A program made the translations under genes and the position numbers. 64,000 nucleotides of DNA, taken from positions 6,266,001-6,330,000 of the forward strand of contig NZ_FNSO01000004.1 in assembly GCF_900105945.1 (NCBI RefSeq), given 5' to 3'. The notes under the pieces are model-generated. The model ran no database searches, had not been told where the DNA came from, and saw nothing but the letters and a program-made list of their open reading frames with translations. Source of the DNA: Amycolatopsis tolypomycina. GTDB taxonomy: Bacteria > Actinomycetota > Actinomycetes > Mycobacteriales > Pseudonocardiaceae. This document shows, in pieces, positions 4,671 to 64,000 of the stretch. Positions within the stretch are counted from its first letter, which is position 1; each line of letters opens with the position of its first letter.

Positions 4671-5278
4671 TCGATCCCCCGCTGGCCCTTCTGCCCGGCG
4701 TCCATCGGGTGCTTGACCTTGGTCATCTCGGTGACCAGGTCGGCCGCCTCGACGAGCTCCGGCGGCGCGTACCGGCCGGTGATGACGACGTGCTGGTGCC
4801 CCGGCCGCGAGACCAAAGCAGACACGACGTCGTCGACCTCGAGCCAGCCCCACTTGAGCAGGTAGGAGAACTCGTCGAGGACGTAGAAATCGTGGGTCTC
4901 GGCGGCGAGCCGTCGCTTGATCTCCGCCCAGCCCTCACGGGCGTTGGCCGCGTGGTCCTCTTCGGTGCCGGACTTGCGCGCCCAGCTCCAGCCCTCGCCC
5001 ATCTTGTGCCACTCGACCGGCCCGCCCTGGCCAGTGTCCTCGTGCAGCTTCCCCAGCGCGCGGAACGCGGCTTCCTCGCCGACGCGCCACTTCGCCGACT
5101 TGACGAACTGGAACACGCCGATCGACCAGCCCTGGTTCCAGGCCCGCAGCGCCATCCCGAACGCGGCCGTCGACTTGCCCTTCATCTCGCCGGTGTGCAC
5201 GGCGAGCAGCGGCCGGTTGCGGCGCTGGCGCGTGGTCAGGCCGTCGTCCGGGACGGCGTCCGGTTTGCCCTGCGGCAT
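4664..5278 (-). CDS. cobO: Corrinoid adenosyltransferase, CobO/BtuR type
   Basis: 204 aa, the normal length for CobA/CobO/BtuR. It transfers the 5'-deoxyadenosyl group of ATP to cob(I)yrinic acid a,c-diamide. The P-loop GEMKGKST is at 30-37, followed by family signatures FQFVKSAKWRVGEE, a FYVLDEFSYLLKWGW block, and a C-terminal TEMTKVKHP. The ATG at 5278 shares one base with the chelatase stop (TGATG), and the 3' end overlaps cobB, giving a tightly coupled chelatase-cobO-cobB-cobC operon. Confidence 0.95.
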   Translation of the reverse strand: MPQGKPDAVPDDGLTTRQRRNRPLLAVHTGEMKGKSTAAFGMALRAWNQGWSIGVFQFVKSAKWRVGEEAAFRALGKLHEDTGQGGPVEWHKMGEGWSWARKSGTEEDHAANAREGWAEIKRRLAAETHDFYVLDEFSYLLKWGWLEVDDVVSALVSRPGHQHVVITGRYAPPELVEAADLVTEMTKVKHPMDAGQKGQRGIEW

Positions 5279-14809: not shown

Positions 14810-16297
14810 TCAGTAGCTGCGCGGGGTCCAGACGACACCGCCGTCCACGCGGGTGCGGCTGGACCCCACGATCAGCAGGCAGCGCATGTCCACAGTGGAC
14901 GGTTCGAGGTCGCCGAGCGTGGTGATCCGGATGTCCTCCTCCGGGCCGCCCACGTCCCGCGCCACCACGACCGGTGTGGCGGGCGCGCGGTGGCGCAGCA
15001 GCACGGCACGGGCGTCGGCCAGCTGGGTCGTGCGGGTCCGGGACGCCGGGTTGTACAGCGCCAGCACCAGGTCGGCCGCGCCCGCCGCGTCGAGGCGTTT
15101 CTCGATGATCTCCCACGGCTTCAACCGGTCCGACAGCGACAGCACGCAGTAGTCGTGCCCCAGCGGCGCGCCCACCCGGGAAGCCGCCGCCTGGGCCGCC
15201 GTCACGCCCGGGACGATCCGGACGCGGACGCCCGCGCCGTGGCCCTCGGCCACCTGTTCCAGCACCGCCGACGCCATCGCGAACACCCCCGGGTCGCCCG
15301 AGGACACCACGGCGACCCGCGAACCGGACGCGGCCAGGGACAGCGCCTCGCGCGCCCGGTCCGCCTCGACGCGGTTGCCCGACGCGTGCCGCTGCTGGCC
15401 CGCCTTCTGCGGCACCCGCGCCACGTACGGGCCGTACCCGACGACGTGCTCCGCCGCGTCGAGTTCCGAGGCCGCCTCCGGCGTCAGCCACTCCGGGCCC
15501 GCCGGGCCGAGTCCCACGACGACGACTTCGCCACCCGAAGAAGGCGAAGGCACCGGAGCCGACGGAGAAACCCGGGACGCGTAAGCCGGCGAAGGCAGCA
15601 ACGCCAGCGAGAAGTACGGCACCGTCGACGGGTCCACCGAGGCCAGAGGCTCGATCCGCTGCTGCCCCCACGTCGCGCGCTCGACGTAGACGGCGTCGTC
15701 CAGCTTGCCCGCCTCCGCGAACGCCTCCCGCACGGACGAGAACGTCCGGCCCAGTTTCAGCACCGCCGCCGCGTCGGTGTCCGCCAGGCGACGGGCCAGC
15801 TCCGGGGCCGGCAGTGTGCCCGGCAGCACCGTCAGCACCTCGTCGCGCTGTACCAGCGGGCGGCCGATCACCGACGACGCCGCGCTCACCGATGTCACCC
15901 CCGGCACGACCACCGCCTCGAAGCGGCCCGAGAGCCGTTCGTGCATGTACATGTAGGAGCCGTAGAAGAACGGGTCGCCTTCGCAGAGCAGCACCACGTC
16001 GCGGCCCGCGTCGAGGTGCTCGGCCAGCCGCTTCGCGCTCAGCTCGTAGAAGTCGGCGATCGCGCCTTCGTACCCGCCCGGGTGGTCGGTCGTCTCCGTC
16101 GTGACCGGGTAGACGAGCTTCTCCTCGATCTGCCCCTCACGCAGGTACGGCTCGGCGACCGACCGCGCGATGCTGCGGCCGTGCCGCGCGCAGTGGTAGG
16201 CGATCACCGACGCCTCGGAAATGAGGCGCGCCGCCTTGACCGTCATCAGTTCCGGGTCGCCGGGGCCGAGCCCGACGCCGTACAGGGTGCCCGTCAT
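14810..16297 (-). CDS. cobIJ: CobI-CobJ fusion: precorrin-2 C20- and precorrin-3B C17-methyltransferase
   Basis: 495 aa. Residues 1-235 are CobI (GVGLGPGDPELMTVKA, LLCEGDPFFYGSYMYM). A Ser/Pro-rich linker covers 236-256. Residues 257-495 are CobJ (VVGLGPAGPEWLTPEA, VSSGDPGVFAMA, LALYNPASRTRT). One chain therefore carries two SAM methylations, with the CobG step falling between them; such fusions are known in mycobacteria and relatives. The ATG at 16297 overlaps the cobH stop by 4 bases. Confidence 0.95.
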   Translation of the reverse strand: MTGTLYGVGLGPGDPELMTVKAARLISEASVIAYHCARHGRSIARSVAEPYLREGQIEEKLVYPVTTETTDHPGGYEGAIADFYELSAKRLAEHLDAGRDVVLLCEGDPFFYGSYMYMHERLSGRFEAVVVPGVTSVSAASSVIGRPLVQRDEVLTVLPGTLPAPELARRLADTDAAAVLKLGRTFSSVREAFAEAGKLDDAVYVERATWGQQRIEPLASVDPSTVPYFSLALLPSPAYASRVSPSAPVPSPSSGGEVVVVGLGPAGPEWLTPEAASELDAAEHVVGYGPYVARVPQKAGQQRHASGNRVEADRAREALSLAASGSRVAVVSSGDPGVFAMASAVLEQVAEGHGAGVRVRIVPGVTAAQAAASRVGAPLGHDYCVLSLSDRLKPWEIIEKRLDAAGAADLVLALYNPASRTRTTQLADARAVLLRHRAPATPVVVARDVGGPEEDIRITTLGDLEPSTVDMRCLLIVGSSRTRVDGGVVWTPRSY

Positions 16298-49761: not shown

Positions 49762-49834
49762 GCGCCATTAGCTCAATTGGCAGAGCAGCTGGCTCTTAAC
49801 CAGCGGGTTCGGGGTTCGAGTCCCTGATGGCGCA
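49762..49834 (+). tRNA. tRNA-Lys (CTT)
   Basis: 73 nt. The acceptor stem is GCGCCAT (49762-49768) with ATGGCGC (49827-49833) and discriminator A. The anticodon stem is GCTGG/CCAGC (49788-49792, 49800-49804) and the anticodon is CTT at 49795-49797. The T arm reads GGGGTTCGAGTCCC. CCA is not encoded. An integrase gene next to its 3' end suggests it is, or was, an integration site. Confidence 0.96.
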
Positions 49835-49842
49835 CAGTTGGA

Positions 49843-49941: not shown

Positions 49942-51257
49942 TCAGTGACTGGCCGTCACCAGCCGTGCCCGTGGTGACCCGCTGCGCTGACGGGGCACCA
50001 CCACCTTGTGGATCTTGGCCCCGTGCTGGTACCCCGCGCGCCGGACCAGCGCCGCCGTCGCATCCGCCGCCTGCTGCGCCAGGCAGGGCGGGACACTGGT
50101 GTAGGTGTCCGCGGTGAGCACGATGCTGGAATGCCCGAGCAGGGCCTGCACCACCTGCAGCTCGTTCCCGGCCGCCAGCGACAGGGTCGCCGCACCATGC
50201 CGCAGGTCATGGAACCGGATCGGCGGCAAGCCGGCCTCGTCCACCAGAGCCTGGAAGGTGCGGGAGACGTAGCTCGGGCTCCACGACCGGCCCTGATCAT
50301 GAGAGAACACCCAATCCCCAGCCGGGTCCTCCCGGGCAAGCCGGCGCAGCAAGGCAGTCGTCCCCCGATCCAACGCGACGATCCGGCAGCTGGCGTCTGT
50401 CTTCGGCAGGCATACACCCCGGCCATCACGTTCGACCAGCTGCCGCACCACCGACAACGTCCGATTTGCCAGATCGACATCGCACCAGCGCAGACCGACC
50501 GCCTCCCCACGTCGCAACCCCAGCAGAGCCGCCACGTGATAGAGCGGGTACAGCTGGTGATCGCGGACCTGCTCGAGGAACGTCGCGGTCTGCTCGGCCG
50601 TCCACACCGCAACCGCCGGACGTTCCCCGGTCCGGCGCCACAGCTCGACCCGGGCCTCGGTCCACACCACCGCCCGAGGGCGACGCGCCGAGGGCAACTC
50701 CACCCACCGCGCCGGATTGTGCGTGATCAATCCACGCCGGATCGCACCGTTGAGCGCGGCCCGCAGCACCTCACGAATCCGCTGCACCGTCGTCGGCGAC
50801 AACGGCCGCGACCGCACCACGTTCGCCCGCAACAACGCCGTGAACGCCGCCTGCACCTTCCCGATCGTCAGCTCCGGCAGCGCGAACCCACCCAACCGCG
50901 GCTGCAGATAGTCACGGATCAGCTGCTCATACAGCTGACGTGTCGACGGCCGGAGCGTGTTCCTCGTCGCCAGCCACACATCCAGCCACTGGCCCACCGT
51001 CACCAAGGCCCGCCCAGGATCCACATCGTCACCCAGCCAGAACCCCCGCGCACGTTCCGCCGCAGCCCGCGACGCAAACCCGCCACGCTGCACCCAACGA
51101 CGACCACCGTCCCGGCCCGCCGCCAGCTCGACCACGAAATACCACCGCCCGTGCCCACGCTCACCAGCCGCGGACAACGCAACCCCCAGCGGCGACCATC
51201 GTCCGGATTGACGCAACCACACCGCTTGAACACCCGCCCACCTGATCGCTTCGTCAT
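49942..51257 (-). pseudogene. Tyrosine-type integrase, N-terminus frameshifted
   Basis: The true start appears to be the ATG at 51257, with GGAGGA at 51261-51266. It begins MTKRSGGRVFKRCGCVNPDD, as phage/ICE integrases of actinomycetes do. After CPRL, near 51160-51170, the reading frame is lost. The rest is in another frame, starting ERGHGRWYFVVELAAG. One extra G in the ctggtgag stretch would restore it. The SAM-like core and catalytic domain are complete: R in GLRRGEAVGL, HDLRH, GHSS, and the Tyr in TADTYTSV. A truncated start is possible, so weak activity cannot be excluded. Confidence 0.85.
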
Positions 51258-52127
51258 GATTCCTCCGTCCACAGAGCACACCAACACATCAACGATGCGC
51301 GCGTCATGCGAAACTCTCCAGTTTCGACGACAAGACAAATTGCGCGACGGAGCCCAAGACCATGGGATTTCCGAGACGAGGCGTACTCGATACTGTCGGC
51401 CACGCCTACCGACCCGTCACGCCTGCTCGCCTGCCCCAGTGCGAACAGGCTGCGTGATCGCCCGAGCTACACAGGGTCAGTGACGCAAAGTGCCACGGTG
51501 GGCGATCTGGCTTACTAGGTCAGCCCCGGCGTACCAGAGGTTCGATCTCACGCTGTTCGGCAGCAGGTTGCTCCCAGGCCTCCGAGCCCCGTCCCAGATC
51601 ACCTGCACACGACGCCGCGGTGTCACGGGCGCTCGAAGTCCCGGTCCTGCCGGAGATCGCGGGTTGGCAGCACGGTGTGCCTTCTCGGGGTCGCGCCGGA
51701 CGATGATCCGGAACAACGGCGCCGGCACGACCGCGACAACAGGCCGTCACCGCTCTCCCATAGCAGCTGCAGGTAGCCGTTGATGAGGCGGTTGGGACCG
51801 GTGTCGAGGATCGTGCGGCCAACTCATCGGTGCACCAACGCCTAATACCCTGATGGGACGGTCGTACGCGTCAAACCTGGGACAGCGCGCTGAACAAGCT
51901 TACGGTATCTCGCCGCTAAAATGCTCGAAAATGGCCGAATTTGCTTACTTGTAGATGCAGTAGCAAATCGCTGACACTCACATTAAGACAAGAACGACCC
52001 GCAAGATATTCATCAGCTTTTCACCAGAGTTCCACCTGGCGATCTGGACAGAGGCGACCACCAAGGAGCTCATACAGAATCGATCTGAACCGATTCGGAC
52101 AATCGATTATCTTTGAGACACCTACCA
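51258..52127. other. 870-bp decayed, AT-richer stretch
   Basis: No complete gene is visible. A 7-bp hairpin CGAAACT-CTCC-AGTTTCG lies at 51309-51326, upstream of the integrase start. The minus strand around 51600-51810 contains a protein-like fragment (LDTGPNRLINGYLQLLWE) broken by stops, probably a dead gene. From about 51900 the sequence becomes much richer in A and T than the chromosome to the left, which suggests foreign DNA. Confidence 0.5.
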
Positions 52128-52517
52128 TCACCTCTTTGACATCGTCGAAATGCCACCCGATGCCATAGAGAACAGGCGGTAAAGCGCCTTTCTAACATCC
52201 GAATCTCGATCAAGTCGTTCCAATGACGTGAATCTCATCGGATCAAGGTCGACCGTAGCGACTCCGCCCGCATCCTCACTGTTCGAGGCGGAGAAGATCG
52301 CCAAGCATCGATAGGCTCGCACGGATCCCTCCCTCTCCTCGCGCATCAGCGACTGCAGAAACACGCTATCATCCTCAACCTGGCCACGAAGAGCACTGAC
52401 CGAGGTCCAACGAGCAGAAAAACCCTGCCGCTCCGCATCCAATTGAATTTCTACCAAAGTATCAAAATCAATTCGACATATACGGAAGTCCGGATCGGCC
52501 GAACTAATCATTGTCAT
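52128..52517 (-). CDS. Candidate immunity protein for the orphan RHS toxin tip
   Basis: 129 aa, acidic, no signal peptide or membrane segment, no recognised family. It starts at the ATG at 52517, 7 bp after the stop of the orphan toxin tip, with GAGGA inside the toxin's 3' end. Position, size, cytosolic nature and lower GC are what is expected of an immunity gene for a polymorphic toxin. The role rests on context only. Confidence 0.65.
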   Translation of the reverse strand: MTMISSADPDFRICRIDFDTLVEIQLDAERQGFSARWTSVSALRGQVEDDSVFLQSLMREEREGSVRAYRCLAIFSASNSEDAGGVATVDLDPMRFTSLERLDRDSDVRKALYRLFSMASGGISTMSKR

Positions 52518-52524
52518 CTAAGAA

Positions 52525-53904
52525 CTATCCTCCACCGTAGACGTCGATACGAATGGGCGTATTTGGATCAAGGCTTCCATTGCTGATTCTTCTTTGGATT
52601 TCATCCCATCGATGATGTCCACCTAGAATCGTGCCACTTCGCGATACTACGATCCCCTCCCCTTCTGCCACTCCGTTGATGCCACGCAGAAGCTCTTCGT
52701 TGCTCAATTCCTCATGATACCACTGCGACGCAGGGTCTCGAGTCGCTTGACCAGGCCTGTACTTCCCGGCCAGATCAGCAGCCTTTTCAGTGCGCTGCGA
52801 CCAGTTGCCACTTGCAGCAGCAACCTTGCCTGCCTTCGCAGCTTCCTCAGCGGCCTTGCCAACCTTCCCTAAGCCGCCACCCGGAACCATCGAAGCAGCC
52901 AGTCCCACACATGCATCAGTATGACCTGTCGCACACTCGGGGATGTCCGCGAGGAAGACATTATAAATAAAGCCCGCTAATCCAGTGAGTTTCCCACCCA
53001 TTCGACATTCATCTGCAGAGCCTCCCAGCGCATCGCACACCAGAGTGTTCGGCCAATCGGCAGTCGCAGCGAAGTCTATCGCTTCCTGCCACGTCAGTGC
53101 GCTGGACCCTTTATAACCGGAGTCAACGAACATCTTAAATTGTTCCTTGGACAGCCCGTGGCCTGCTGCGGGCCTCGCAAGCATTTCCTCGCGCGGGGAA
53201 CGCTGGCGCTGTACAGGGGCGCGTTTCCAGTTGGTCTTGACTCCGGCGTTGTAGTTCCGGGCCCGCGCGGCCTTGGCTGGGCTCATGCTGGCGATCGCGT
53301 CCTGGCCGATCCAGGCGGGGCGGCCATCCATCTGAAGGATCAGACCACTTGGGTCACTGAAGTTGATCGGCGAGTTGTTGGCGTAGCTGTAGCCGTTGAT
53401 CTGCTGCGGACTGAAGAAGTCCGTGATCAGGTCGAGGGAGACGAACCGGCCCAGGTCGGCGTCGTAGTCGCGGGCGCCGAGATGAGTCAAGCCGGTTGCC
53501 TGATCGATCGTGCCGCCGACGAACCCGCGTTCACCGGGCAACTCACCGCTCATTCCACGCGGAGACCCGAACGGCGTCTGCCGACGCTGCTGGACCTTCG
53601 GCTCGGCGGTGTCGTCGGTGACGCTGATCGCGATCTGGGTCGTGCCCTGGTGGTCACCGGCCAGCCAGCTCAGCTTTCCACCAGTCCGCACCGCAACCAT
53701 CGCGCCACCGTGGCTGTAGTAGCGGGTCGTCTTAGCGGTCCCGGACTGCTTGTCGACCCGGACCTCCTGATCACCCAGATACAGGGTCGTGCCGGTGGGA
53801 TCCCGACGAATCAACCGCCCACCGTCGGCGTCGTAGAGAAAGCTGGTCTGCGAGCTCCCCTCGGTGACCGTGCTGAGCCGACTCTCCGTGTCCCAGTCCA
53901 GCAT
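52525..53904 (-). CDS. Orphan RHS tip: conserved core end fused to a ParB-like toxin domain
   Basis: 459 aa. Residues 1-~186 repeat the end of the RHS core of the downstream-numbered full gene, ending with NGYSYANNSPINFSDPSGL. The tip (~187-459) is unrelated to the full gene's tip. It ends with GIVVSRSGTILGGHHRWDEI, which resembles the ParB/sulfiredoxin-like nuclease motif seen in some polymorphic toxins. No ribosome-binding site or signal peptide precedes it. The upstream RHS sequence stops at 54042 after an out-of-frame deletion, so it is probably silent unless recombined. Confidence 0.75.
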   Translation of the reverse strand: MLDWDTESRLSTVTEGSSQTSFLYDADGGRLIRRDPTGTTLYLGDQEVRVDKQSGTAKTTRYYSHGGAMVAVRTGGKLSWLAGDHQGTTQIAISVTDDTAEPKVQQRRQTPFGSPRGMSGELPGERGFVGGTIDQATGLTHLGARDYDADLGRFVSLDLITDFFSPQQINGYSYANNSPINFSDPSGLILQMDGRPAWIGQDAIASMSPAKAARARNYNAGVKTNWKRAPVQRQRSPREEMLARPAAGHGLSKEQFKMFVDSGYKGSSALTWQEAIDFAATADWPNTLVCDALGGSADECRMGGKLTGLAGFIYNVFLADIPECATGHTDACVGLAASMVPGGGLGKVGKAAEEAAKAGKVAAASGNWSQRTEKAADLAGKYRPGQATRDPASQWYHEELSNEELLRGINGVAEGEGIVVSRSGTILGGHHRWDEIQRRISNGSLDPNTPIRIDVYGGG

Positions 53905-54023
53905 TTGCTGCGCCGTGGCGCCAGGGCGGGTCTTGGTGTTGCCGACCTGGTCGTACGTGTACTGGCTCGTGCCGGCGGAACCGGACGAGGTGACGGAGTT
54001 CAGGATGTGCGGTTTCGGGGTTC
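53374..54023. repeat. 650-bp perfect direct repeat, copy 1 (orphan side)
   Basis: Identical to 55436-56085 at an offset of 2062 bp over every base I compared. It is followed by 19 bp (54024-54042) equal to 56261-56279, so copy 1 has lost 175 bp at a TTC microhomology. It covers the end of the RHS core, just before the variable toxin tip. Confidence 0.95.
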
Positions 54024-54088
54024 GGTCAGCCGTTGCAGGTAGCCATCTCGGATCCCCTCACCGAGCACAACAAGATATCTTTAGCAGA

Positions 54089-54469
54089 TCAGCCACCATA
54101 GAGCTTCTCGCGCATCCGATCGTTCATCAAATATATCCGTCGATGCAGGTACCCCGGCCATTCCTTATCAGTATCACCAAGATACTTGACAACTTCGAAA
54201 ACTACATCCTTATCCAGAAGTCCAACGGTTGCAGATTCGACATCAGAGACTAGTTCATTGAGATCGTCATCGACAAGGTGATTATCCTCTGATATGCACG
54301 CGTGAATTACCACCCTTTGCGCCTTCACCTCCACACTGACTCCGAGCAATTCAGGCCCAAGCAATCCAACAGAGGCCTGAAGAACTATTCCAACCGCATC
54401 ACTCTCCCAAACGTCGAAACCCTCACCCTTCTCGACCCGCGGAGCAGAGTCCGGCCGATCAATTCCCAT
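54089..54469 (-). CDS. Candidate immunity protein for the full-length RHS toxin
   Basis: 126 aa, acidic, no signal or membrane helix, no family recognised. It follows the RHS gene on the same strand, 96 bp past its stop, the usual place for an immunity gene. I use the ATG at 54469, preceded by GGGGTAAAGG; a TTG at 54487 is an in-frame alternative. GC is lower than in the RHS core. Confidence 0.65.
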   Translation of the reverse strand: MGIDRPDSAPRVEKGEGFDVWESDAVGIVLQASVGLLGPELLGVSVEVKAQRVVIHACISEDNHLVDDDLNELVSDVESATVGLLDKDVVFEVVKYLGDTDKEWPGYLHRRIYLMNDRMREKLYGG

Positions 54470-54565
54470 ACCTTTACCCCATTGCAAAATAGTTCACAAC
54501 CTCACCATGGGCCCCGCACAGTGTACCGCACAGGCAATCACGCTCGCCGCCGCTACCGTGGACCA

Positions 54566-57500
54566 CTATCCACCTAGCTTCGGATTAGTCGGAACAATGC
54601 TCGGACTCTGCGTACCTTTCATCATGAATATATTGGTCGGCTGATTCGGGAAATTGTTGGCGGGGTTGTGATTATACCCAACCACTCCGTCATATCGAAA
54701 TATAACATTCCCACTCGGAAGTACGTTTAGCACGCGGACGTTACCAGATTTGTAGGCGTCGAATACCTCTTGCGCTTCCTGCATTGACCTGAAATAGCTC
54801 TTCCCCGAGTACAGACGGTCGCCCATGATATGCCTACCTTGCCTCTGCAAACTCAACGCCGAACCGATTTGGGGGATAGATATTGTCACCCCCTTGCTGT
54901 TTGTCAGGAAACTCGGCGTCTTCATATTCTTGCCTAATGCTGCAGCACCGATGGCGATCCCACCATCGGCCGCCGCCGCCATAAATGCACATTTGACCCA
55001 ATCAGGACATCCGTCTGCCTCATTGATGTTCATCGCGACAATCTGCGCCCATACCAGACAGTCATCGCCGTCGAGGTTGCTGGCGACGCATTGCGCATGA
55101 ACCTCGTCGAGGACCGCTGGCCCTCCACCTTCTTCATACGCTTCCAACGCCATGTTCAGGCGAACCTGACCAGATGAGCGCCGCATATCGTCATCCGTGG
55201 AAACCGTGTTCGTGTAGTCGAGGTCGTCACGCTGCTTACGGCTCAGATGCTGCCCCTTGACAACGCCTTTCCTGACCAACTGGTCTTTGCTGTAGTGCCC
55301 GTTGATGTCAGCACCGTGTCCGCCGCCAATTGCCGGTGCTGATGGGTTGATCCCGCAGTCCCCGCGCCAGCCAACGCAATAGCCGGGCTTGTCTTCGGGC
55401 CGGAGTCCACTGGGATCGCTGAACGTGATGGGACTGTTGTTGGCGTAGCTGTAGCCGTTGATCTGCTGCGGACTGAAGAAGTCCGTGATCAGGTCGAGGG
55501 AGACGAACCGGCCCAGGTCGGCGTCGTAGTCGCGGGCGCCGAGATGAGTCAAGCCGGTTGCCTGATCGATCGTGCCGCCGACGAACCCGCGTTCACCGGG
55601 CAACTCACCGCTCATTCCACGCGGAGACCCGAACGGCGTCTGCCGACGCTGCTGGACCTTCGGCTCGGCGGTGTCGTCGGTGACGCTGATCGCGATCTGG
55701 GTCGTGCCCTGGTGGTCACCGGCCAGCCAGCTCAGCTTTCCACCAGTCCGCACCGCAACCATCGCGCCACCGTGGCTGTAGTAGCGGGTCGTCTTAGCGG
55801 TCCCGGACTGCTTGTCGACCCGGACCTCCTGATCACCCAGATACAGGGTCGTGCCGGTGGGATCCCGACGAATCAACCGCCCACCGTCGGCGTCGTAGAG
55901 AAAGCTGGTCTGCGAGCTCCCCTCGGTGACCGTGCTGAGCCGACTCTCCGTGTCCCAGTCCAGCATTTGCTGCGCCGTGGCGCCAGGGCGGGTCTTGGTG
56001 TTGCCGACCTGGTCGTACGTGTACTGGCTCGTGCCGGCGGAACCGGACGAGGTGACGGAGTTCAGGATGTGCGGTTTCGGGGTTCCGGGCGCGGCGTAGG
56101 TGTAGCGGCGGATGACATCGCCGGTGGCGTTGTGCTGGGTGTCCGTGGTGCGGTTACCGGACTTGTCGTAGGTGAAAGACTGCCAGTAGCGGGCCGGGCC
56201 ACCCAACCCGCCCGTGGCCGGGTCGGTGCTGCACGGTTCGCTGGCCGGCGTCCAGGCTTCGGTCAGCCGTTGCAGGTAGTCGTAGCGGAAGCACTGGGTG
56301 TCGGCGGCTTGGTCGAGTGGGGTGTTGGCGATCGAGGTGATGGCGCCGGCGGGGTTGTAGGTGTAGTGGTTGTCGGCCTGCATAGGGTGGGCGACTTCGG
56401 CGTCGACGATGGTGCGGTCGAGCCGACGGGTGTTCGTGTCGTAGTAGGCCGACAGCCAGGCTCGGTGGCCGGTGACGCCGAGCTGGAGGCGCTGCAGTTC
56501 CCCGTACTTGGTGTAGTCGGACGCGGTGACGTATTCCTGGGTGCCGTTGTTGATCCCACCGCTGGTGGTGAGCGCATTGCCCAGGTCGTCGTGGACGTAG
56601 AGCATGCTTTCGACGGGGAGGTCTCCCGCTTTCGGGATGCTGGCGCCGCCCAGGGTGCCGTCTTCGGCGTAGGTGGTGTTCGTGACGTAGGTGCCGGCCA
56701 GCTGGGTGCCTTCGCTATCGGGGATAATGGTTCCCAAGATGGCAGGCTGGCCGAGCGGGCTGTACGCGTAGACCTTTTTGGTGTAGGCGTTGCCGTTGAC
56801 CCAGCGGGTCGAAGACGCGGGCTGCCCGACGCCCTTGTAGGCGGTGTCGTAGGCCCATTCGGCGAGCTTGGTCCCGGTGGTGCTGCCCTGGTAGAGCCCC
56901 GTCCTGCGCCCGAGGTGGTCGTAGCTGTAGGCAAGCGTGACGTTGCGCGCGTCGGTGCTCGTGGCCAGCTGGTTGAGCTTGTCGTAGGTGTAGGTCGTGG
57001 TTCCGCGGTCAGGGTCGACGGCTTGGTTCAGCGAGCCGTGCAGGTCGTAGCCGTAGGACCAGTGGTTGCCGCTGGAGTCGGTGACACCGCCGAGCTTGCC
57101 TGCGGGGGTGTAGGCGTAGGTCGTTTCGTCGTAGTCACCGGTCGGCGTGGTGCCGTGGTACTGGCGGAGGTTACGAGTGTGGCCACGGGCGTCGGTGATC
57201 GTGGTGGTCGGGGTGCCGCCGCCGGGTGGGGTGATACTGATCCGGTCGCCGCCGTAGGTCGTGGTGGTGCGCCAGCGTTCGTTGGCGTCGGTCTTGTAGA
57301 TGGCTGCGACGGGGCGTTCCGCGCCGTCGAACTCGGTGGTGGTGAAGCCGGGGATCTCGGTGTCGTCGGCGATCCACAGGTCGGTGTCGACCGGCTGGTC
57401 GTTGTAGAACGGCTGGGTCGTCTTGAATGTGCGGCCGTGGGAGTCGTAACGGGTGTCGACCAGCAGCCGGCCACCGCCGGGCACCGGGGTCTGGACCTGC

Positions 57501-60379
57501 CGGGTGCGGTAGAGGCTGTCGAGGATCGTGGTCGAGGTGGTGAAGTTGCCGTTGGGGCCGACCCGGGTGGTCGAGACGGCGCTGGGCCGGTCGTTGCGGA
57601 TGTCGTAGGTGAACCGGGCGGTCCCTTGCGGTTTTGACGAGCGAGGGCGGTTCGGCGCCCAGACCTCAGTGGTGCGTCCCAGTGCGTCGTAAGTGGTCTC
57701 GGTGGCCCAGTTGTTGAGGTCGGTGACGGTTCGCGGTGTCCCCCACGCGGGCTCATAGACCCTGGTGGTCTTCTGGTTGAGCGCGTTGGTGAGCACCAGC
57801 TGGGTCACCGGCCCGCCGGTCGTCGGGGTGTAGGTGGACCTCGTTGTGTTGCCGTCCGCGTCGGTGACCGCGGTCGCGCGTCCGTGCACGTCGTAGGTGG
57901 TGGTGGCGACGGTCCGGTACCGCGGGGTGGCCCCGTCGTAGTGGTCGATTTCTTCGGCGAGGGTGATGTCACCCTTGGTCGGCGGGGTGCCGTTGGCTTG
58001 CGGCGTGCTGGGGGCCTGCGGGGTTCCGTCGCCGCGCGTGTCGTAGGAGGCGAGGGTGTCGGACACCGTGTCGCGCGGGTACTGCGGGGTTTGGCCGCAG
58101 TTGACGGCGGTGGTCTCGACACGCGAAGCGAACTGCATCAGCCACAGCGCGGTGTTCTGCGCGTAGGTCGTGGTCGTGCACTGGTCGTCGTCGGCGACGT
58201 TGATGTCACCGAGGTCGTTGACCTTGGTCGGCAACCCGTATTGGTCGTAGTCGGTGGTGACCTTGGTCGTGCGCCATCCGCCGGCGGCGAGTGCGGTGAA
58301 GGTGCGTTCGGTTCCGGCGTGCACGAGGTAGGCGTTGAACGGTCCCCGGGTGGCGGTGGGGCCGGTCCAGCTCGGATCCGTGATGGACTTGCTGACTACT
58401 GGCCCGTTCTCGCCGTTCTTCGTCACGCTTTCGAAGGAGAAGCCACGCAGCCAGTCTTCGTCGGCATGGCTACCTCCCTCACTGTCGGACAGCGTGACCG
58501 TGCGGGTTTTGTCGTCGGGGAGCTTGTCCCCGTTCATGCCGCGGTAGTAGCGGCTCTCGGCGTAGCTGGTGGGGCCGGTGAGGTCGTCGGGCTTGCCGGT
58601 GCGGACGATGACCCGGTCAAAACCGCGGAAGTCGTCCCAGGTCTTCTTGTCCTCGGGTGTGAACTCGGACGTGCTGAAGTGCCACGCCGCACCGTCGGGG
58701 TACTCGTAGCTGGTGACCTGCTCGGAACTGGAGCTGATCCGATCGGACTGGACGACCGAGGCGACGACGTACTTGTTGAAGTAGTCGGTGCGTTCGGCGT
58801 AGTTGCGTTTCGCCCACGTCGCCGGGTAGCACCGCTTGGTGTTCTTCTCCGGCTTGTCCGGCAACGCCCCAGGACCGCAGTCGGGTGCCGCGTAGTTGAT
58901 GGTCGTGACGCCACCGGATTCGGACACGATGGCCGAGAGCCGGTAGCGGTTGAGCGGGCCGATGCCGTCGGACACGTCGCCCTTGTCGGCCCGGTTGGCC
59001 AGCTTCTTGCCCTCGAACGTGACGGCGGGCAGCGCGATCGGGGTGCCGACGAGGCCGGCGTGGGTGATGCTCTTCAGCCAGAGCGCAGCTTTCTCACCGT
59101 CACCGGGGTCCGGGAAGGACTGCTCGAGCGTCCAGCTGTCGACGTCGGCGTAGCCGGTGCCGTTGCGGACCTTGGTCGTGATCTTGGCGAGCCGTTTGGT
59201 GGACCAGAATGTCGGGGAGTAATGGTCCTTGCAGTTGGTCGCTCCGCAACGCTCAGCGAGCGGGACGTCCGGCCAGTTCTCCGGATGGTCGAAATTGCAC
59301 AGGTTGCTGCCGGGCACACAGCGATCCGCAGTCTCGAAAACGACCTTGCCCGACGCCGGCGCGGTGTCGTTCTGGCGCAGCCCGTACTGGACCTCTTTGA
59401 GGGTTCCGCCGCGGACATAGGACACCGGTGTGTCCTTGACGTTCTGGCCGTAGGTCCCGGTCTCGACTTCGTAGGTGTAGAGGATCATGTTGCCGTGCCG
59501 GTCGATGACCTTGTCCAGGTTCCACCGGTAGCCCTGCACGCACGAGGAGTTGGCGAAAACGTCGTCGCCCGCGTGGCACGGCTCGCCTGCGTCGTCGCCG
59601 TAGACCGGCACGGTCCAGGTCGAATTCGCCCCTGAGGTGACGCCGAAGAAGTATTGGGTCCCGTCCAGCGTGGTGATTTTCCACGCCTCGCCGTCGTGGG
59701 CGCCGTTTCCTGCGCCGGTGAGGTGTTCGATGCGGGCACCGTTGTCGGATTTCTGGCGCCAGACCTTCTTGTCGGTGTCGTGAATCAGGGGGCCACCGCT
59801 GCCGTTGTAGGAGGCCGTGGCGTTGTCGCTCTTCCAGCACAGGTCACCCACCTGCGGTGGCGTTGTTCCGCCTTCTTTGTCGTCGACACACGAGCCGTAG
59901 GTGCGTTCGATGAAGCCGGGGTTGAGCTCCCAGCCGTCGCCGATCCAGGAGGCTTGGTTGTTCGTCACGCTGGTGCGCCCGTCGATCTCGGCCGAGTTGT
60001 AACCGAGCGCGAGATCAGGTACCAGTCCGCCGGCAGCCGGCGGCACGCGCAACGGATAGGACCAGGTGAAGTCGCCGGTCTGTTCCGATACATCCCAGGT
60101 CGCCGCGGGCGACAACGAGGTCGCCTTGCTGGTTCCTCCGCCGTCCGGCGTAGTCGATCCGCTGCTTTGGTTACCGCTCAGAGCGTGCACACTGGCGTCG
60201 TCGGGAGCCCGTGGGGTCATGGTCTGTTTGGTGACGGGTGTGGATGGCGTTTGCGGCAGCGGGACGCTGGGACCGCCGGCGGCATCCGCGATGCCGGTTG
60301 CGCTGACCATTGTCATCACCAAGGTGCAGGTCAACGCCATGGTGAGCGTTCTCGGACGGCTGAAGGCGGCCGGTCGCAT
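54566..60379 (-). CDS. Secreted RHS/YD-repeat polymorphic toxin
   Basis: 1937 aa. A signal peptide covers about 1-34. An SpvB/TcB-like N-terminal segment follows (YPLRVPPAAGGLVPDLALGY, IGDGWEL). Many YD repeats fill ~830-1640 and the core ends GYSYANNSPITFSDPSGL near 1658. The last ~279 residues are the variable tip, ending with GRHIMGDRLYSGKSYFRSM and a late IVPTNP; this resembles the Ntox50/BECR-type RNase toxins, at moderate confidence. The RHS shell is expected to wrap the tip. The ATG at 60379 has GGAGG upstream. Its immunity gene is probably the next gene. Confidence 0.93.
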   Translation of the reverse strand: MRPAAFSRPRTLTMALTCTLVMTMVSATGIADAAGGPSVPLPQTPSTPVTKQTMTPRAPDDASVHALSGNQSSGSTTPDGGGTSKATSLSPAATWDVSEQTGDFTWSYPLRVPPAAGGLVPDLALGYNSAEIDGRTSVTNNQASWIGDGWELNPGFIERTYGSCVDDKEGGTTPPQVGDLCWKSDNATASYNGSGGPLIHDTDKKVWRQKSDNGARIEHLTGAGNGAHDGEAWKITTLDGTQYFFGVTSGANSTWTVPVYGDDAGEPCHAGDDVFANSSCVQGYRWNLDKVIDRHGNMILYTYEVETGTYGQNVKDTPVSYVRGGTLKEVQYGLRQNDTAPASGKVVFETADRCVPGSNLCNFDHPENWPDVPLAERCGATNCKDHYSPTFWSTKRLAKITTKVRNGTGYADVDSWTLEQSFPDPGDGEKAALWLKSITHAGLVGTPIALPAVTFEGKKLANRADKGDVSDGIGPLNRYRLSAIVSESGGVTTINYAAPDCGPGALPDKPEKNTKRCYPATWAKRNYAERTDYFNKYVVASVVQSDRISSSSEQVTSYEYPDGAAWHFSTSEFTPEDKKTWDDFRGFDRVIVRTGKPDDLTGPTSYAESRYYRGMNGDKLPDDKTRTVTLSDSEGGSHADEDWLRGFSFESVTKNGENGPVVSKSITDPSWTGPTATRGPFNAYLVHAGTERTFTALAAGGWRTTKVTTDYDQYGLPTKVNDLGDINVADDDQCTTTTYAQNTALWLMQFASRVETTAVNCGQTPQYPRDTVSDTLASYDTRGDGTPQAPSTPQANGTPPTKGDITLAEEIDHYDGATPRYRTVATTTYDVHGRATAVTDADGNTTRSTYTPTTGGPVTQLVLTNALNQKTTRVYEPAWGTPRTVTDLNNWATETTYDALGRTTEVWAPNRPRSSKPQGTARFTYDIRNDRPSAVSTTRVGPNGNFTTSTTILDSLYRTRQVQTPVPGGGRLLVDTRYDSHGRTFKTTQPFYNDQPVDTDLWIADDTEIPGFTTTEFDGAERPVAAIYKTDANERWRTTTTYGGDRISITPPGGGTPTTTITDARGHTRNLRQYHGTTPTGDYDETTYAYTPAGKLGGVTDSSGNHWSYGYDLHGSLNQAVDPDRGTTTYTYDKLNQLATSTDARNVTLAYSYDHLGRRTGLYQGSTTGTKLAEWAYDTAYKGVGQPASSTRWVNGNAYTKKVYAYSPLGQPAILGTIIPDSEGTQLAGTYVTNTTYAEDGTLGGASIPKAGDLPVESMLYVHDDLGNALTTSGGINNGTQEYVTASDYTKYGELQRLQLGVTGHRAWLSAYYDTNTRRLDRTIVDAEVAHPMQADNHYTYNPAGAITSIANTPLDQAADTQCFRYDYLQRLTEAWTPASEPCSTDPATGGLGGPARYWQSFTYDKSGNRTTDTQHNATGDVIRRYTYAAPGTPKPHILNSVTSSGSAGTSQYTYDQVGNTKTRPGATAQQMLDWDTESRLSTVTEGSSQTSFLYDADGGRLIRRDPTGTTLYLGDQEVRVDKQSGTAKTTRYYSHGGAMVAVRTGGKLSWLAGDHQGTTQIAISVTDDTAEPKVQQRRQTPFGSPRGMSGELPGERGFVGGTIDQATGLTHLGARDYDADLGRFVSLDLITDFFSPQQINGYSYANNSPITFSDPSGLRPEDKPGYCVGWRGDCGINPSAPAIGGGHGADINGHYSKDQLVRKGVVKGQHLSRKQRDDLDYTNTVSTDDDMRRSSGQVRLNMALEAYEEGGGPAVLDEVHAQCVASNLDGDDCLVWAQIVAMNINEADGCPDWVKCAFMAAAADGGIAIGAAALGKNMKTPSFLTNSKGVTISIPQIGSALSLQRQGRHIMGDRLYSGKSYFRSMQEAQEVFDAYKSGNVRVLNVLPSGNVIFRYDGVVGYNHNPANNFPNQPTNIFMMKGTQSPSIVPTNPKLGG
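55436..56085. repeat. 650-bp perfect direct repeat, copy 2 (inside the full RHS gene)
   Basis: The partner of 53374-54023. It encodes the last ~217 residues of the RHS core up to the tip junction. Recombination with copy 1 would delete 2062 bp, removing the native tip and its immunity gene and joining the orphan tip in frame. Confidence 0.95.
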
Positions 60380-60450: not shown

Positions 60451-63400
60451 TCAGCCCGGAGGTGCTGGGAACGCCGGCGTTACGTCGGGCAGCGTCGTCA
60501 GGGTGTAACCAAGAACGGTGTCGACCGTGCCGCCGTAGCAGTCGGATGAGTTCGCGGTGATGGTGTCGACACCGGGAAAGACACAGCGGTAGAGGGGCTG
60601 ACCGGCCATCCCGTTCGGTGGTGCGGTCCAGATTTCACCGATCGTGCCGAGCACGGTCTTTCCGTCGCAGGTGGCGTCGGTGGAGAGGAACTTGTCGAAG
60701 TCGTTGGCGCAGCTGAGCAAGGGCCGGGTGCCGGGTTGGGAGACCAGGGGCAGGTAGCCCTGGAACACCGTGGCCGTGTAGCCAGGCAACCCACCGCCTG
60801 TGGTGGCCATCCGATCCAACGCCCGGTTGTTGTCGGATGCGGACAACGCCGCATAGGCGATGGTGTAGCCGAGGATGACCTCGCGTGTCGCGCCACCACA
60901 GTCCGGCTGCCGGCTGTCGAACCGCTCCGCGCCGGTGTTGCAGCGGTAGATCGCGGCGCTGGGGAGGTTGCTCGGTTGCTGGGTGAACACCTTGCCGATG
61001 GGGCCGTTGACGGTCTTGCCTTCGCAGGCGTTGTCGGTCGAAGTGAATCCATCAGCGCCGTCTTGGCACGAGTAGAGCGTCGTGGTGCTGGCACTGTCCC
61101 CGCTGACGAGCATGCCGAGCGTCTCTTCGACGTGGTAGCCGGTCAAGGCCGGGCCATCGGTGGCACCGGTGTAGTGCTCACCGGCTCCGTTGACGTACCG
61201 GCCGAGCTGGCCGGCAGCGACCGTGGGCCACGTAGCGTTCTTCGCGATCGAAGCCTCGGTGAGGACGCCGTAGCTGCTGGACACCTCGTCGATGCTGCCG
61301 GGGAAGAAGTCCGCGGCCACGCCGTTCAGCAGGTCACGGCCGACGGTCAAACCGCTGGTCGCGGCCCACGGTGACACGTTGGCACGAGAACCACCGAGCT
61401 GTCCGTCGACGTACAGCCGAAGTTGCCCGGCACCTTCGTCGTAAACCCCTGTCAGGTGCGTCCACCGGTTGAGCACCGGAGTCTGGAACGAAGCGGCGTA
61501 GGCGAACGGGGAAGAGTCCTGGTCCGCCGCCGGCGTGCCGAACACCCAGCGGTTGAGCTCAGGCCGGTACTGCAGGACGAACCCGCTCATCCGGGCCCCG
61601 TCTTGGCCGAGGACGGTCGCGACCTTGTCCGTGCGCGACAACTTCGCCCAGGCCGACACGCTGAAGCTCGCGGTCATCGGTACTCCGACGCCAGGTGTCT
61701 TCGCTTGCCCGGTGGTGCCGTCGAGCTGCAGCCCCTTTCCGCTGATCCCGGCAGCCGACGTGACGCCGCCGGAGAGGACCGCGTCGTTGTGCCGCCACGA
61801 ATAGTCCTTGCCTGTTCCGGCATCGAAGTGCCAATCCCCTGCCGGTGCTTCGACGACATCCCCCGTCACCTTGCGGACCTCACCGTCGCTCAGTGCTCGT
61901 CCGAACACCCGGACGTCGTCGATCGGGCCGGGGAAGAACCCCGTGTCGAAGCCGTTCCACTTGCCACTTCCCAGCGTGAACGGGCCGGTGACGCCGGCCA
62001 AGGTGACACCGACCTGGACCGTGGTAAGCGCGCCGTTGACGTAGAGCTTGATGACGTGCTGCGCCGCGTCGTAGCTCATCGCGAGATGGGTCCACTCATT
62101 CGTGACCACCGCGACGTTCGACACAACGGCCGTGACGGCCGGGTTGTTTTGATCGGACTGCGGGATCACTACGGCCCACTTGCGCAATGTGCCGTTGTAC
62201 TGCACCTGGAACCCGCTGACCGCCGCGCCGCTCTGACCGAAAACGGTGTAGTTGGCGCCGTCCGCCTTGGACAGAACCGTCCAGGCGGAGATCGAGAAGC
62301 TCTGGCCGGTGTTGACGACCTGCCCGGACGTGACGGCATGCCCGGTGACGCCGTCCAGCCAGGCTCCGCCGCCGCTGCGGCCTCCGGCCCATCGATAGCC
62401 TCCGCTCAGGACGGCGTCATGGCCTTGACCACTCATGTCCTGAACCCGCGCTGCGCCGACGTTCTGATCGAAGTCCCACTTCGCGACGTTCGCGGTCGGC
62501 AAGGTGGCCGGGCTCGTATCCAGAGCCGGATACGAGCCGTAGAGCGAGGAGATGTGATCGCGGTCCAAGGTGCCCGCGTAGAGGCGGACATCGTCGATGG
62601 AGCCGGGCCAGAACTGCGCTGCCTGACCCGCTTCTTTCCCCCGCCCGAAGGCGGCGCCGCCGGTGGCCTGCCAAGCCGTGTTCACGGTGCCGTCACCGAC
62701 CCGCTCGCCGTCCACGTACAGCCACGTTTTGCGGGACTGCTTGTCGTAGACGCCGGTCAGGTGCGTCCACGTGTTGATCTCAGCGGACAAGGTCGACACG
62801 GCCGCCCTTGTCACGACGGCGGTGTCGCTGTCGGACTCGGCCATCTCGAACACCCACTTGCCACAGGCGTTCGAGTCGCCTGGCATGCCGTCGAAACAGA
62901 ACGCGCTCATGTCATCCGCGACGTGCCCGAGGCGGAACTTGCTGGCCCGGCTGCCATCGACGCTGACCGCGGTGAACTTCGATACCACGTCGCTCTTGCG
63001 GTCGAGGTACACCCACGCCGAAACGGTGAAGCTGTCGTCGGTGCGCAGGTCGACGCCGGCGGTGGAGACGGCACCGGTACTGCCGTCGAGCTTCGCTGCG
63101 TTGCCGACCCGGCCTGGCATCAGCTTCGCCCCGGCGTTAAGTGTGCCGGGCCGCGCGCCGATGGAGTCGGCGGTGTTGGTGCCGCTCGATTCGTCGAACT
63201 GCCAGTCGTGCACCAGGGCGAGGTCGCGGCCGGACATGGCGCGAATCTCGTCGGTGAACAGGGCGCGGCTGTAGACCTTGATGTCATCGGCCGCACCGAC
63301 CAGCTGGTTGGCCCAGGTGCCGGCCCACTTCGCGCGGCCGATGTCGAACTCGCCGGTGGCGTTCCACGGCGTGCTCATCACCCCTGTCGCCGAGAGCGTG

Positions 63401-64000
63401 CCGTTGACGAACAGCTGCATCTCGCCCGTGGAAGCGTTGTAGGTCGCGGCGAGGTGGGTCCACACCCCGGTCTGGACCGGCTGCGCCGACCGCACCCGGG
63501 GCGTCGAGGACGGGGAGTCGGCATCGCTGCCGTTCATGCCGAACGCCCACCGGTCGTCGGTGGACCCGCTGTAACCGAGGGTGAACGCAGGGGCCCGGGT
63601 GCCGTTCTGGCTGGCGACCGCACCCCAGTCCGCGGTCTTGCTGCCCAGCTTGACCCAGGCGGTGACCGAGAAGCTTTTCCCGGTGTCGACGGCCGGAGCT
63701 GAGCTGATGTAGCCAATGGAGCCGTTGAAGCTCGCGGCGAGGTCGCTGGGGTCCGGGTTGTTGGTCTGGCCCGGCGCCCAGTCCACGCGGCCGTTCACCG
63801 TGCCGTTCTTTCCGTTGCCGGAAGCGTCCTGGGTGTTGCCGTCGAGTTTCCAGGTCGCGGCGGTGACGTTGTTCTGCGCGACGATGCCCTGGATTTCGTT
63901 GGCGGCCAGAGGACGGGTGTAGGCGCGGACCTCGTCGATGTCGCCTGTCCAGAAGCCTGTGGCGGCACCGTATTGCCCGCGGCCGATCACGAACGGGCCG
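60451..64000 (-). CDS. Large LamG-repeat secreted protein, 5' end outside the window
   Basis: The frame is open to the right edge, so about 1183 residues of a longer protein are seen. It holds the end of one LamG/concanavalin-like domain and four full ones, each with SFSVSAW-like and WTHL...Y......LYVNG motifs and a final DIDEVR-like strand. The C-terminal ~260 residues are two Cys-paired repeats (SC..D.F.STD..C.GKTV, then YRC..., dC.G, LGYT) of unknown family. It ends 71 bp before the RHS ATG on the same strand and may be cotranscribed. A surface adhesin or carbohydrate-binding partner is plausible. Confidence 0.85.
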   Translation of the reverse strand, partial: GPFVIGRGQYGAATGFWTGDIDEVRAYTRPLAANEIQGIVAQNNVTAATWKLDGNTQDASGNGKNGTVNGRVDWAPGQTNNPDPSDLAASFNGSIGYISSAPAVDTGKSFSVTAWVKLGSKTADWGAVASQNGTRAPAFTLGYSGSTDDRWAFGMNGSDADSPSSTPRVRSAQPVQTGVWTHLAATYNASTGEMQLFVNGTLSATGVMSTPWNATGEFDIGRAKWAGTWANQLVGAADDIKVYSRALFTDEIRAMSGRDLALVHDWQFDESSGTNTADSIGARPGTLNAGAKLMPGRVGNAAKLDGSTGAVSTAGVDLRTDDSFTVSAWVYLDRKSDVVSKFTAVSVDGSRASKFRLGHVADDMSAFCFDGMPGDSNACGKWVFEMAESDSDTAVVTRAAVSTLSAEINTWTHLTGVYDKQSRKTWLYVDGERVGDGTVNTAWQATGGAAFGRGKEAGQAAQFWPGSIDDVRLYAGTLDRDHISSLYGSYPALDTSPATLPTANVAKWDFDQNVGAARVQDMSGQGHDAVLSGGYRWAGGRSGGGAWLDGVTGHAVTSGQVVNTGQSFSISAWTVLSKADGANYTVFGQSGAAVSGFQVQYNGTLRKWAVVIPQSDQNNPAVTAVVSNVAVVTNEWTHLAMSYDAAQHVIKLYVNGALTTVQVGVTLAGVTGPFTLGSGKWNGFDTGFFPGPIDDVRVFGRALSDGEVRKVTGDVVEAPAGDWHFDAGTGKDYSWRHNDAVLSGGVTSAAGISGKGLQLDGTTGQAKTPGVGVPMTASFSVSAWAKLSRTDKVATVLGQDGARMSGFVLQYRPELNRWVFGTPAADQDSSPFAYAASFQTPVLNRWTHLTGVYDEGAGQLRLYVDGQLGGSRANVSPWAATSGLTVGRDLLNGVAADFFPGSIDEVSSSYGVLTEASIAKNATWPTVAAGQLGRYVNGAGEHYTGATDGPALTGYHVEETLGMLVSGDSASTTTLYSCQDGADGFTSTDNACEGKTVNGPIGKVFTQQPSNLPSAAIYRCNTGAERFDSRQPDCGGATREVILGYTIAYAALSASDNNRALDRMATTGGGLPGYTATVFQGYLPLVSQPGTRPLLSCANDFDKFLSTDATCDGKTVLGTIGEIWTAPPNGMAGQPLYRCVFPGVDTITANSSDCYGGTVDTVLGYTLTTLPDVTPAFPAPPG

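What the first reader, a model, noticed from the sequence alone, without database searches (positions are those of the whole stretch)
52128..60379. RHS toxin-tip switching cassette: full gene plus orphan tip joined by a 650-bp perfect repeat
The full RHS gene ends in one tip with one immunity candidate. Just downstream is a second tip with a different toxin domain and its own immunity candidate, carrying the last 650 bp of the RHS core. The two core copies are identical over 650 bp (53374-54023 and 55436-56085). One crossover would delete 2062 bp and put the new tip in frame on the secreted shell, with its immunity gene directly behind. The perfect identity implies recent duplication or continued gene conversion. 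Orphan RHS tips are known in Gram-negatives; a cassette this clean in an actinomycete is worth testing.
Basis: partly seen in the sequence, partly recalled or inferred. Interest (0 to 1): 0.75.

Follow-up and report, generated by a model that had tools for sequence, protein, structure and literature searches.

The report
Displaced RHS toxin tip, actinomycete island
A soil actinomycete (Amycolatopsis) carries a large secreted toxin gene with a second, disconnected toxin end stored behind it, sharing a perfect 650-base overlap that could let the bacterium swap one toxin for the other; the arrangement is known from gut bacteria, and here it sits on a mobile-looking DNA island.

Summary
Observation confirmed: two identical 650-nt direct repeats (53374-54023, 55436-56085; spacing 2062), the only full-length copies in the 10.4-Mb genome. 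The downstream copy heads an intact orphan tip (ParB-like toxin domain, no start codon before the core) with its own immunity gene. The pair looks real: the domain occurs in 39 long actinobacterial proteins, and the immunity gene follows it in other genera. The main tip is an Ntox50 toxin. Frames match, so one crossover could swap tips, deleting the main tip and its immunity gene.

Best reading: C-terminal displacement, an old tip shunted downstream by a new one, as in enterobacterial rhs. The repeat's 5' edge is a deletion scar. Two relatives with the same tRNA-Lys locus carry other tips; A. bullii and an unrelated RHS locus (G074, 419 bp, 1 difference) show the same layout. Continual gene conversion is not a rule: the A. 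bullii copies are 88% alike.

Beyond the finding: the locus is a 17.9-kb island in tRNA-Lys with integrase, duplicated 43-nt tRNA end and, in relatives, matching empty sites; no such site was found around the A. bullii gene. Switching is unproven; no reads or sister strains were available. A new member of a known kind.

The parts
49762..49835 (+). tRNA-Lys (CTT), integration site of the island; its last 43 nt (49793-49835) are attL
49942..51279 (-). tyrosine recombinase (integrase), 445 aa, next to attL
   Evidence: Pfam Phage_integrase E=3.5e-21; NCBIfam Xer-like matches below their cut-offs
52128..52517 (-). immB: immunity candidate of the orphan tip, 129 aa, no Pfam family
   Evidence: 166 proteins found, own included; directly behind the same toxin in other genera
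52525..53904 (-). orphan tip ORF (459 aa from the first start codon, an internal ATG of the core): core end + linker + toxin
52528..52815 (-). orphan toxin domain (96 aa) with GGHHRWDE motif, ParB-like
   Evidence: 39 long proteins match it, the Kitasatospora query included; alignment A2; weak ParB/sulfiredoxin fold matches
52816..53340 (-). linker of orphan tip, shared with the full-length gene of Amycolatopsis sp. A133 and with the A. bullii orphan
   Evidence: tblastn 76% over 160 aa and 84% over 170 aa
53374..54023 (-). repeat copy 2: last 650 nt of the RHS core (short of its final 30 nt or so) in front of the orphan tip
54021..54042 (-). 22-nt remnant of core sequence found further upstream in the main gene (56258-56279); marks a 175-bp deletion with a 3-nt overlap
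54089..54487 (-). immA: immunity candidate of the main tip, 132 aa
   Evidence: weak relatives behind the same toxin in L101 and L102, not recognised in L100
54566..60379 (-). main RHS gene, 1937 aa, SpvB domain, YD repeats, RHS core, N-terminus that reads like a signal peptide (by eye)
54566..55402 (-). main tip: linker plus Ntox50 toxin domain
   Evidence: Pfam PF15542, 32.3 bits for the toxin part alone, cut-off 22.2
55436..56085 (-). repeat copy 1, inside the main gene
60451..64000 (-). large secreted-looking repeat protein upstream of RHS, called LamG-type here by eye and recall (about 2267 aa; mechanical start outside the window at 67251); NCBIfam gave no family for the part in the window
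   Evidence: conserved beside RHS in relatives

Best explanation
A displaced ('orphan') RHS tip. The gene once ended in the ParB-like tip; homologous recombination in the conserved core loaded a new tip (Ntox50) with its immunity gene and shunted the old tip, its immunity gene and a core fragment downstream. Later the core fragment lost 175 bp at its 5' side, leaving 650 identical bases. The main gene makes a Sec-type secreted RHS shell that carries Ntox50; the orphan cannot be exported as it stands. A crossover between the repeats could re-load the old tip at the cost of the main tip and its immunity gene. All of this lies on a 17.9-kb integrative island in tRNA-Lys. Shown: anatomy, repeat, scar, conserved toxin/immunity pairing, tip polymorphism in relatives, island borders. 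Inferred: order of events, export route, toxicity, immunity, any switching.
For: Exact repeat, same frame. Orphan toxin and immB are a conserved pair: 39 proteins of 1318 to 2908 aa, the query included, match the toxin domain; in 6 of the 12 immB loci returned by the family search, own included, the toxin lies directly upstream; in 4 of the 8 genomes of the class search I looked at the new loci, and immB follows in 4 of 4. Tip polymorphism: A133, at the same tRNA-Lys locus, has a core about 92% identical in protein but the orphan-type linker and another C-terminus; G065, same locus, has the start of the main-type linker (60% over 48 aa) and another C-terminus; A. bullii has a main and an orphan tip whose C-terminal ends match neither tip here. 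Same layout elsewhere: A. bullii 682 bp at 88%, G074 419 bp with 1 difference, G029 501 bp at 90%. G+C drops from 0.65-0.66 (core) to 0.55-0.58 (tips) and 0.50-0.52 (immunity genes). Deletion scar in the orphan core. Island: 43-nt tRNA end duplicated 17,933 bp apart, integrase beside the tRNA, and in two relatives the native tRNA flank seen at empty sites lies just beyond the second copy.
Against: No strain of the same species and no reads were available, so the ancestral state (core plus ParB-like tip) is inferred; A133 shares the linker but not the toxin. The complete orphan tip (linker plus this toxin) was not seen on a full-length gene in the loci examined. 100% identity needs a recent event or a conversion; they cannot be told apart here. 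In 6 of the 12 immB loci no such toxin was recognised upstream, and one of the four further toxin copies is broken by a stop. immA is supported only weakly. The A. bullii gene pair has no tRNA-Lys att copy in the 32.9 kb of its contig that I held, and its tRNA-Lys lies on another contig, so the same island is not shown there.
Confidence: 0.82

Rival explanations
1. An actively used switch: a fraction of cells recombine the repeats, display the orphan toxin and attack unswitched kin, and the repeat is kept identical by use.
For: 650 bp of perfect homology, same frame, intact orphan frame and immunity gene. In Salmonella a 522-bp, 95% repeat is the proposed site of exactly this in evolved lineages, with a junction detected (PMC3967940, passages). 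A near-perfect repeat also occurs at the unrelated G074 locus.
Against: No recombined junction could be looked for. A. bullii copies are 88% alike, so homogenisation is not general. Deletion loses immA; without prior duplication it is one-way.
Confidence: 0.25
2. The orphan is kept for immB (protection from strains that carry this common toxin) or acts as an internal toxin-antitoxin pair; the core repeat is a passenger.
For: immB stands without a recognisable toxin in 6 of 12 loci; toxin and immB are widespread in actinobacteria. Salmonella rhs toxins, main and orphan, were reported to work as internal toxin-antitoxin pairs (PMC7043789, passages).
Against: The toxin half is an intact frame close to its relatives (63 to 74% identity in a 10-sequence alignment), which pure immunity would not need; but a recent origin would also explain that. 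No expression data. Promoter-like sites were near chance: 3 found, 1.3 expected, sd 1.1.
Confidence: 0.3
3. Assembly artefact: a repeat duplicated or mis-joined by the assembler.
For: Perfect identity is what an artefact would give; reads could not be seen.
Against: Copies have different flanks on both sides, the second copy carries a private 175-bp deletion scar, the contig is 8.17 Mb and the window has no N, and other species' assemblies show the same layout.
Confidence: 0.03
4. The orphan arose from a tandem array of two RHS islands at tRNA-Lys (an A133-like type-A island with the ParB-like tip and a G065-like type-B island with the main-type linker), followed by deletion between them.
For: The island's tRNA-proximal end is of the same class as A133's, and right of the second att copy lies a remnant of the other class, as in G065 (62 of 69 nt). 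A133 carries the orphan-type linker, G065 the start of the main-type linker.
Against: The start of the main-type linker is common in the clade (43 to 58% over 41 to 74 aa in most of L009-L014, L027-L029 and others), so it does not single out G065. The exact order of deletions does not follow simply. The stretch around the 46-nt spacer 54043-54088 matches nothing but itself in the loci held.
Confidence: 0.15

Closest known systems
Enterobacterial rhs loci with dissociated C-terminal tips (Jackson et al. 2009, PMC2935791; passages seen)
   Same: Full gene followed by dissociated tips that carry core fragments; within each E. coli strain compared, attached and dissociated cores were identical (91.6% amino acid identity in Serratia marcescens); core and tips differ in G+C; circular intermediate and single crossover proposed.
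   Different: Actinomycete, SpvB-type secreted RHS gene; [quoted passage not shown]
Salmonella Typhimurium LT2 main rhs and orphan rhs-CT (Koskiniemi et al. 2014, PMC3967940; passages seen)
   Same: Main plus one orphan with immunity genes; 522-bp shared core (95%); fusion by homologous recombination, junction detected; orphan without start and export signals.
   Different: Enterobacterial Rhs thought to be exported by T6SS; recombination shown there, only possible here; here 650 bp at 100%.
CDI orphan cdiA-CT/cdiI modules (Poole et al. 2011, PMC3150448, passages) and cdi loci on tRNA islands (PMC4927057, passages)
   Same: Orphan toxin/immunity pairs behind a full gene; islands at tRNA 3' ends whose toxin/immunity pairs vary within an island family.
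   Different: CdiA/CdiB two-partner system of Gram-negatives, VENN border instead of DPxGL.
Polymorphic toxin families Ntox50 and Tox-ParB (Zhang et al. 2012, PMC3482391; passages)
   Same: Main tip scores above the Ntox50 cut-off; orphan toxin has a GHHR motif like the DGHHR motif given for Tox-ParB, and weak ParB-fold matches.
   Different: Orphan toxin reaches no Pfam cut-off (best DR2241, 14.7 bits against 26.4); immB has no match at all.

Membership tests
RHS polymorphic toxin | RHS core-associated domain and YD repeats, variable C-terminus after DPxGL | tested here: met
   TIGR03696 and TIGR01643 over cut-off; RHS_repeat over cut-off; tips differ after DPSGL
T6SS-type (PAAR) enterobacterial Rhs | PAAR domain at the N-terminus | tested here: not met
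   Pfam scan at E<=0.1 gave RHS_repeat, Ntox50 and SpvB only; N-terminus reads like a signal peptide by eye
Orphan (displaced) rhs-CT/rhsI module | Downstream of a full gene, same strand, with a core fragment near-identical to it | tested here: met
   650 of 650 nt
Orphan (displaced) rhs-CT/rhsI module | Non-homologous tip with its own immunity gene | tested here: met
   No cross-match of the two tips at E<=0.01 on L086, which holds the main tip and most of the orphan tip; toxin/immB pairing conserved. Immunity activity itself untested
Orphan (displaced) rhs-CT/rhsI module | Lacks own start and export signals | tested here: met
   Stop upstream in frame, first start codon inside the core
Orphan (displaced) rhs-CT/rhsI module | Same toxin found on full-length genes elsewhere | tested here: met
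   39 proteins of 1318 to 2908 aa, the Kitasatospora query included
Orphan (displaced) rhs-CT/rhsI module | Recombination with the main gene in a population | not testable with these tools
   No reads, no sister strains
Ntox50 toxin | Score above curated cut-off | tested here: met
   32.3 bits against 22.2
Tox-ParB | ParB-like fold with GHHR motif | tested here: inconclusive
tRNA-integrated genomic island | Duplicated tRNA 3' end, adjacent integrase, empty sites in relatives | tested here: met
   43-nt exact repeat in own, G065, A133; integrase; first 70 nt after the tRNA at sites G070, G025, G017 against those beyond the second copy in A133 and G065: 54 to 62 identical, against at most 46 between this native flank and element ends. 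In the own genome the far flank is another element end, not the native flank
tRNA-integrated genomic island | Excision as a circle | not testable with these tools
   No reads

The most novel reading that the evidence does not exclude
RHS genes of this Amycolatopsis clade travel as integrase-bearing tRNA-Lys islands, and the excised or tandemly inserted islands supply the circular donor that the 2009 displacement model had to postulate: site-specific integration brings a new core-plus-tip next to a resident one, and homologous recombination in the core then loads the new tip and leaves the old one as an orphan.
Probability: 0.17. Interest if true: 0.65.

Novelty: new member of a known kind. Interest (0 to 1): 0.42.

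Why it matters
It carries the displaced-tip arrangement, worked out in enterobacteria, to a secreted SpvB-type RHS gene of an actinomycete, with an unusually clean, recent repeat that makes switching directly testable. The tRNA-Lys island with its own integrase offers a concrete possible source for the circular donors that tip exchange is thought to need, and the orphan pair defines an immunity family without a Pfam name (166 proteins found, own included).

Tried and rejected
Continual gene conversion as the reason for identity: rejected as a rule (A. bullii 88%), not excluded here. A foreign origin of the repeat segment: identity of own to A133 falls only from 90.5% (core) to 88.5% (repeat), no sharp step; to G065 it falls more, from 90.0 to 83.1%. 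A promoter in front of the orphan: promoter-like and terminator-like sites near chance. Structure of the orphan toxin: two models, mean pLDDT 65 and 61, too weak to stand alone. Solved relatives: none for a 105-aa stretch holding the orphan toxin; for the Ntox50 part MafB2 8hhj at E=0.04 and two weaker rows. RHS as general cargo of tRNA-Lys islands: by eye from the listings (cut short), I saw an RHS core end within about 20 kb behind tRNA-Lys in G000, G010, G039, G065 and G066 out of 44 genomes, so this is not a rule of the genus. Other short RHS frames fetched: L070 and L072 had no self-repeat of 80 nt or more; L067 had none either; L068 (581 bp, 78%), L069 (131 bp, 92%), L071 (465 bp, 88%, 10 kb apart) and L073 (557 bp, 76%) have self-repeats that I did not resolve and did not count as orphan cassettes.
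Full report
What is there. The two 650-nt segments are identical and offset by 2062. They are the only full-length copies in the genome, which is G000, 10.36 Mb in 4 contigs; the window is C4:6266001-6330000. The nearest named relatives of the locus are Amycolatopsis bullii and Amycolatopsis sp. A133, and the genome search counts them in the same genus, so the organism is taken to be an Amycolatopsis. G039 and G066 are taken as A. bullii and A133 from matching contig lengths and places.

Parts. The main RHS gene (54566-60379, minus strand) has an SpvB domain, YD repeats and the RHS core-associated domain and begins with a stretch that looks like a signal peptide (by eye). Its tip holds Ntox50 above the curated cut-off. 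The orphan ORF (52525-53904) has the core end and another tip. Upstream of the repeat its frame is closed by a stop, and its first start codon lies inside the core. So it is not expected to be made as an exported protein. Two small genes follow the two tips.

How the repeat arose. The spacer between immA and the repeat is 65 nt. Its last part, with the first 3 nt of the repeat, is a 22-nt perfect copy of core sequence that in the main gene begins 194 nt upstream of the repeat start; in the orphan that distance is 19 nt, so 175 bp are missing. The orphan therefore once held at least about 844 bp of core, and the edge of the repeat is a scar. With 0 differences in 650 the 95% upper bound on divergence is 0.46%, against 75 of 650 to A133, the nearest relative. 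The event, or a conversion, is recent compared with the split of these species.

Relatives. At the same tRNA-Lys locus A133 carries the orphan-type linker on its full-length gene with another C-terminus, and G065 carries the start of the main-type linker (48 aa at 60%) with another C-terminus. A. bullii has the same gene pair (LamG-type gene and RHS) with a main tip and an orphan whose C-terminal ends match neither tip here; Pfam finds nothing in those two tips. The main-type linker start is common in more distant relatives too. The core is about 88 to 91% identical in DNA between the four species. Thus tips are exchanged at the core end, and apparently again between linker and toxin. In A. 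bullii main and orphan cores differ at 77 of 650 sites, and the orphan is nearest to the main gene of G065 (60 of 650); this speaks against steady homogenisation. In the tree of these six segments the two own copies pair with A133.

How common in the genus. Scanning 44 genomes for the core-associated domain (21, 23, the second listing cut short), I found by eye 4, this one included, with a short second core end within 7 kb downstream of a long one: G000, G039, G029 and G074. Direct repeats between main and orphan: G039 682 bp at 88%, G029 501 bp at 90%, G074 419 bp at 99.8% with different tips behind. A 4.7-kb contig of G063, outside the 44, has 126 bp at 94%. So the layout recurs, with near-perfect repeats in 2 of 4.

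The island. The last 43 nt of tRNA-Lys recur exactly 17,933 bp away, 475 bp beyond the mechanical start of the LamG-type gene. A tyrosine recombinase lies beside the tRNA. G065 and A133 have the same duplication, 16,442 and 15,906 bp apart; in A133 the integrase match is a short C-terminal piece near a transposase-like ORF. In G070, G025 and G017 tRNA-Lys is followed directly by a terminator-like flank, and no second att copy lies in the 17 to 18 kb fetched. That flank lies just beyond the second copy in A133 and G065: 54 to 62 of the first 70 nt identical, against at most 46 between this flank and element ends. This is the picture of an integrated island. In the own genome the far flank is instead of the class that follows tRNA-Lys in G065, G039 and G044 (61 to 62 of 69 nt), a hint of an earlier second island, so the native flank was not seen there. 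Of the 30 loci returned, I classed 18 by their first 32 nt as the native type, 11 as one of two element classes and 1 as other (by eye). Against the island as a general carrier: in the 32.9 kb of the A. bullii contig that I held there is no att copy with up to 6 mismatches, and its tRNA-Lys lies on another contig.

Mechanism and prior work. Jackson et al. 2009 proposed that tips are displaced by a single crossover with a circle carrying core and tip, and reported identical attached and dissociated cores in E. coli (passages). Poole et al. 2011 showed functional orphan CDI modules and noted that simple deletion would remove immunity (passages). Koskiniemi et al. 2014 detected the fusion junction in Salmonella with a 522-bp, 95% repeat (passages). 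Our locus matches these in layout. cdi loci on tRNA islands, with variable toxin/immunity pairs, are also known (PMC4927057, passages). In the search listings (open-access full texts only) I saw no title on RHS orphans in actinomycetes; this does not establish absence from print.

Verdict. It is a new member of a known kind, made more interesting by the island and integrase.

Noticed in passing
49793-49835 and L023:3726-3768: 43-nt exact duplication of the tRNA-Lys end bounding a 17.9-kb island with integrase, RHS genes and LamG-type gene; copies of the tRNA end occur away from the tRNA gene in many of the 80 genomes, so tRNA-Lys looks like an island hotspot in the genus.
   Followed up: partly
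L023:3769-3849: Right of the second att copy lies a remnant resembling the integrase-proximal end of the G065 RHS island, suggesting a former tandem island.
   Followed up: partly
L065:8562-8980 and 14840-15258: Unrelated RHS locus in another Amycolatopsis (G074): 419-bp repeat with one difference, main and orphan tips, two related small genes behind the main tip (73% DNA repeat) and a transposase-like ORF between.
   Followed up: partly
L051 (A133), about 4100-5500: Only a short C-terminal piece of the integrase is matched in the A133 island, next to a transposase-like ORF, so that island may be stuck.
   Followed up: no
52128-52517: immB belongs to a 129-aa family without Pfam name, 166 proteins found; the organisms named in the listing are, as I read them, all actinobacteria; often no such toxin is recognised beside it.
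   Followed up: partly
L142 (G039:C11:66000-85000): In A. bullii another RHS gene (core end at C11:75254) lies about 6.5 kb behind tRNA-Lys, while the counterpart of this locus sits on a different contig without an att copy.
   Followed up: no
54569-54922: The HxVP motif quoted for Ntox50 in PMC3482391 appears to read SIVP here (by eye); effect on activity unknown.
   Followed up: no
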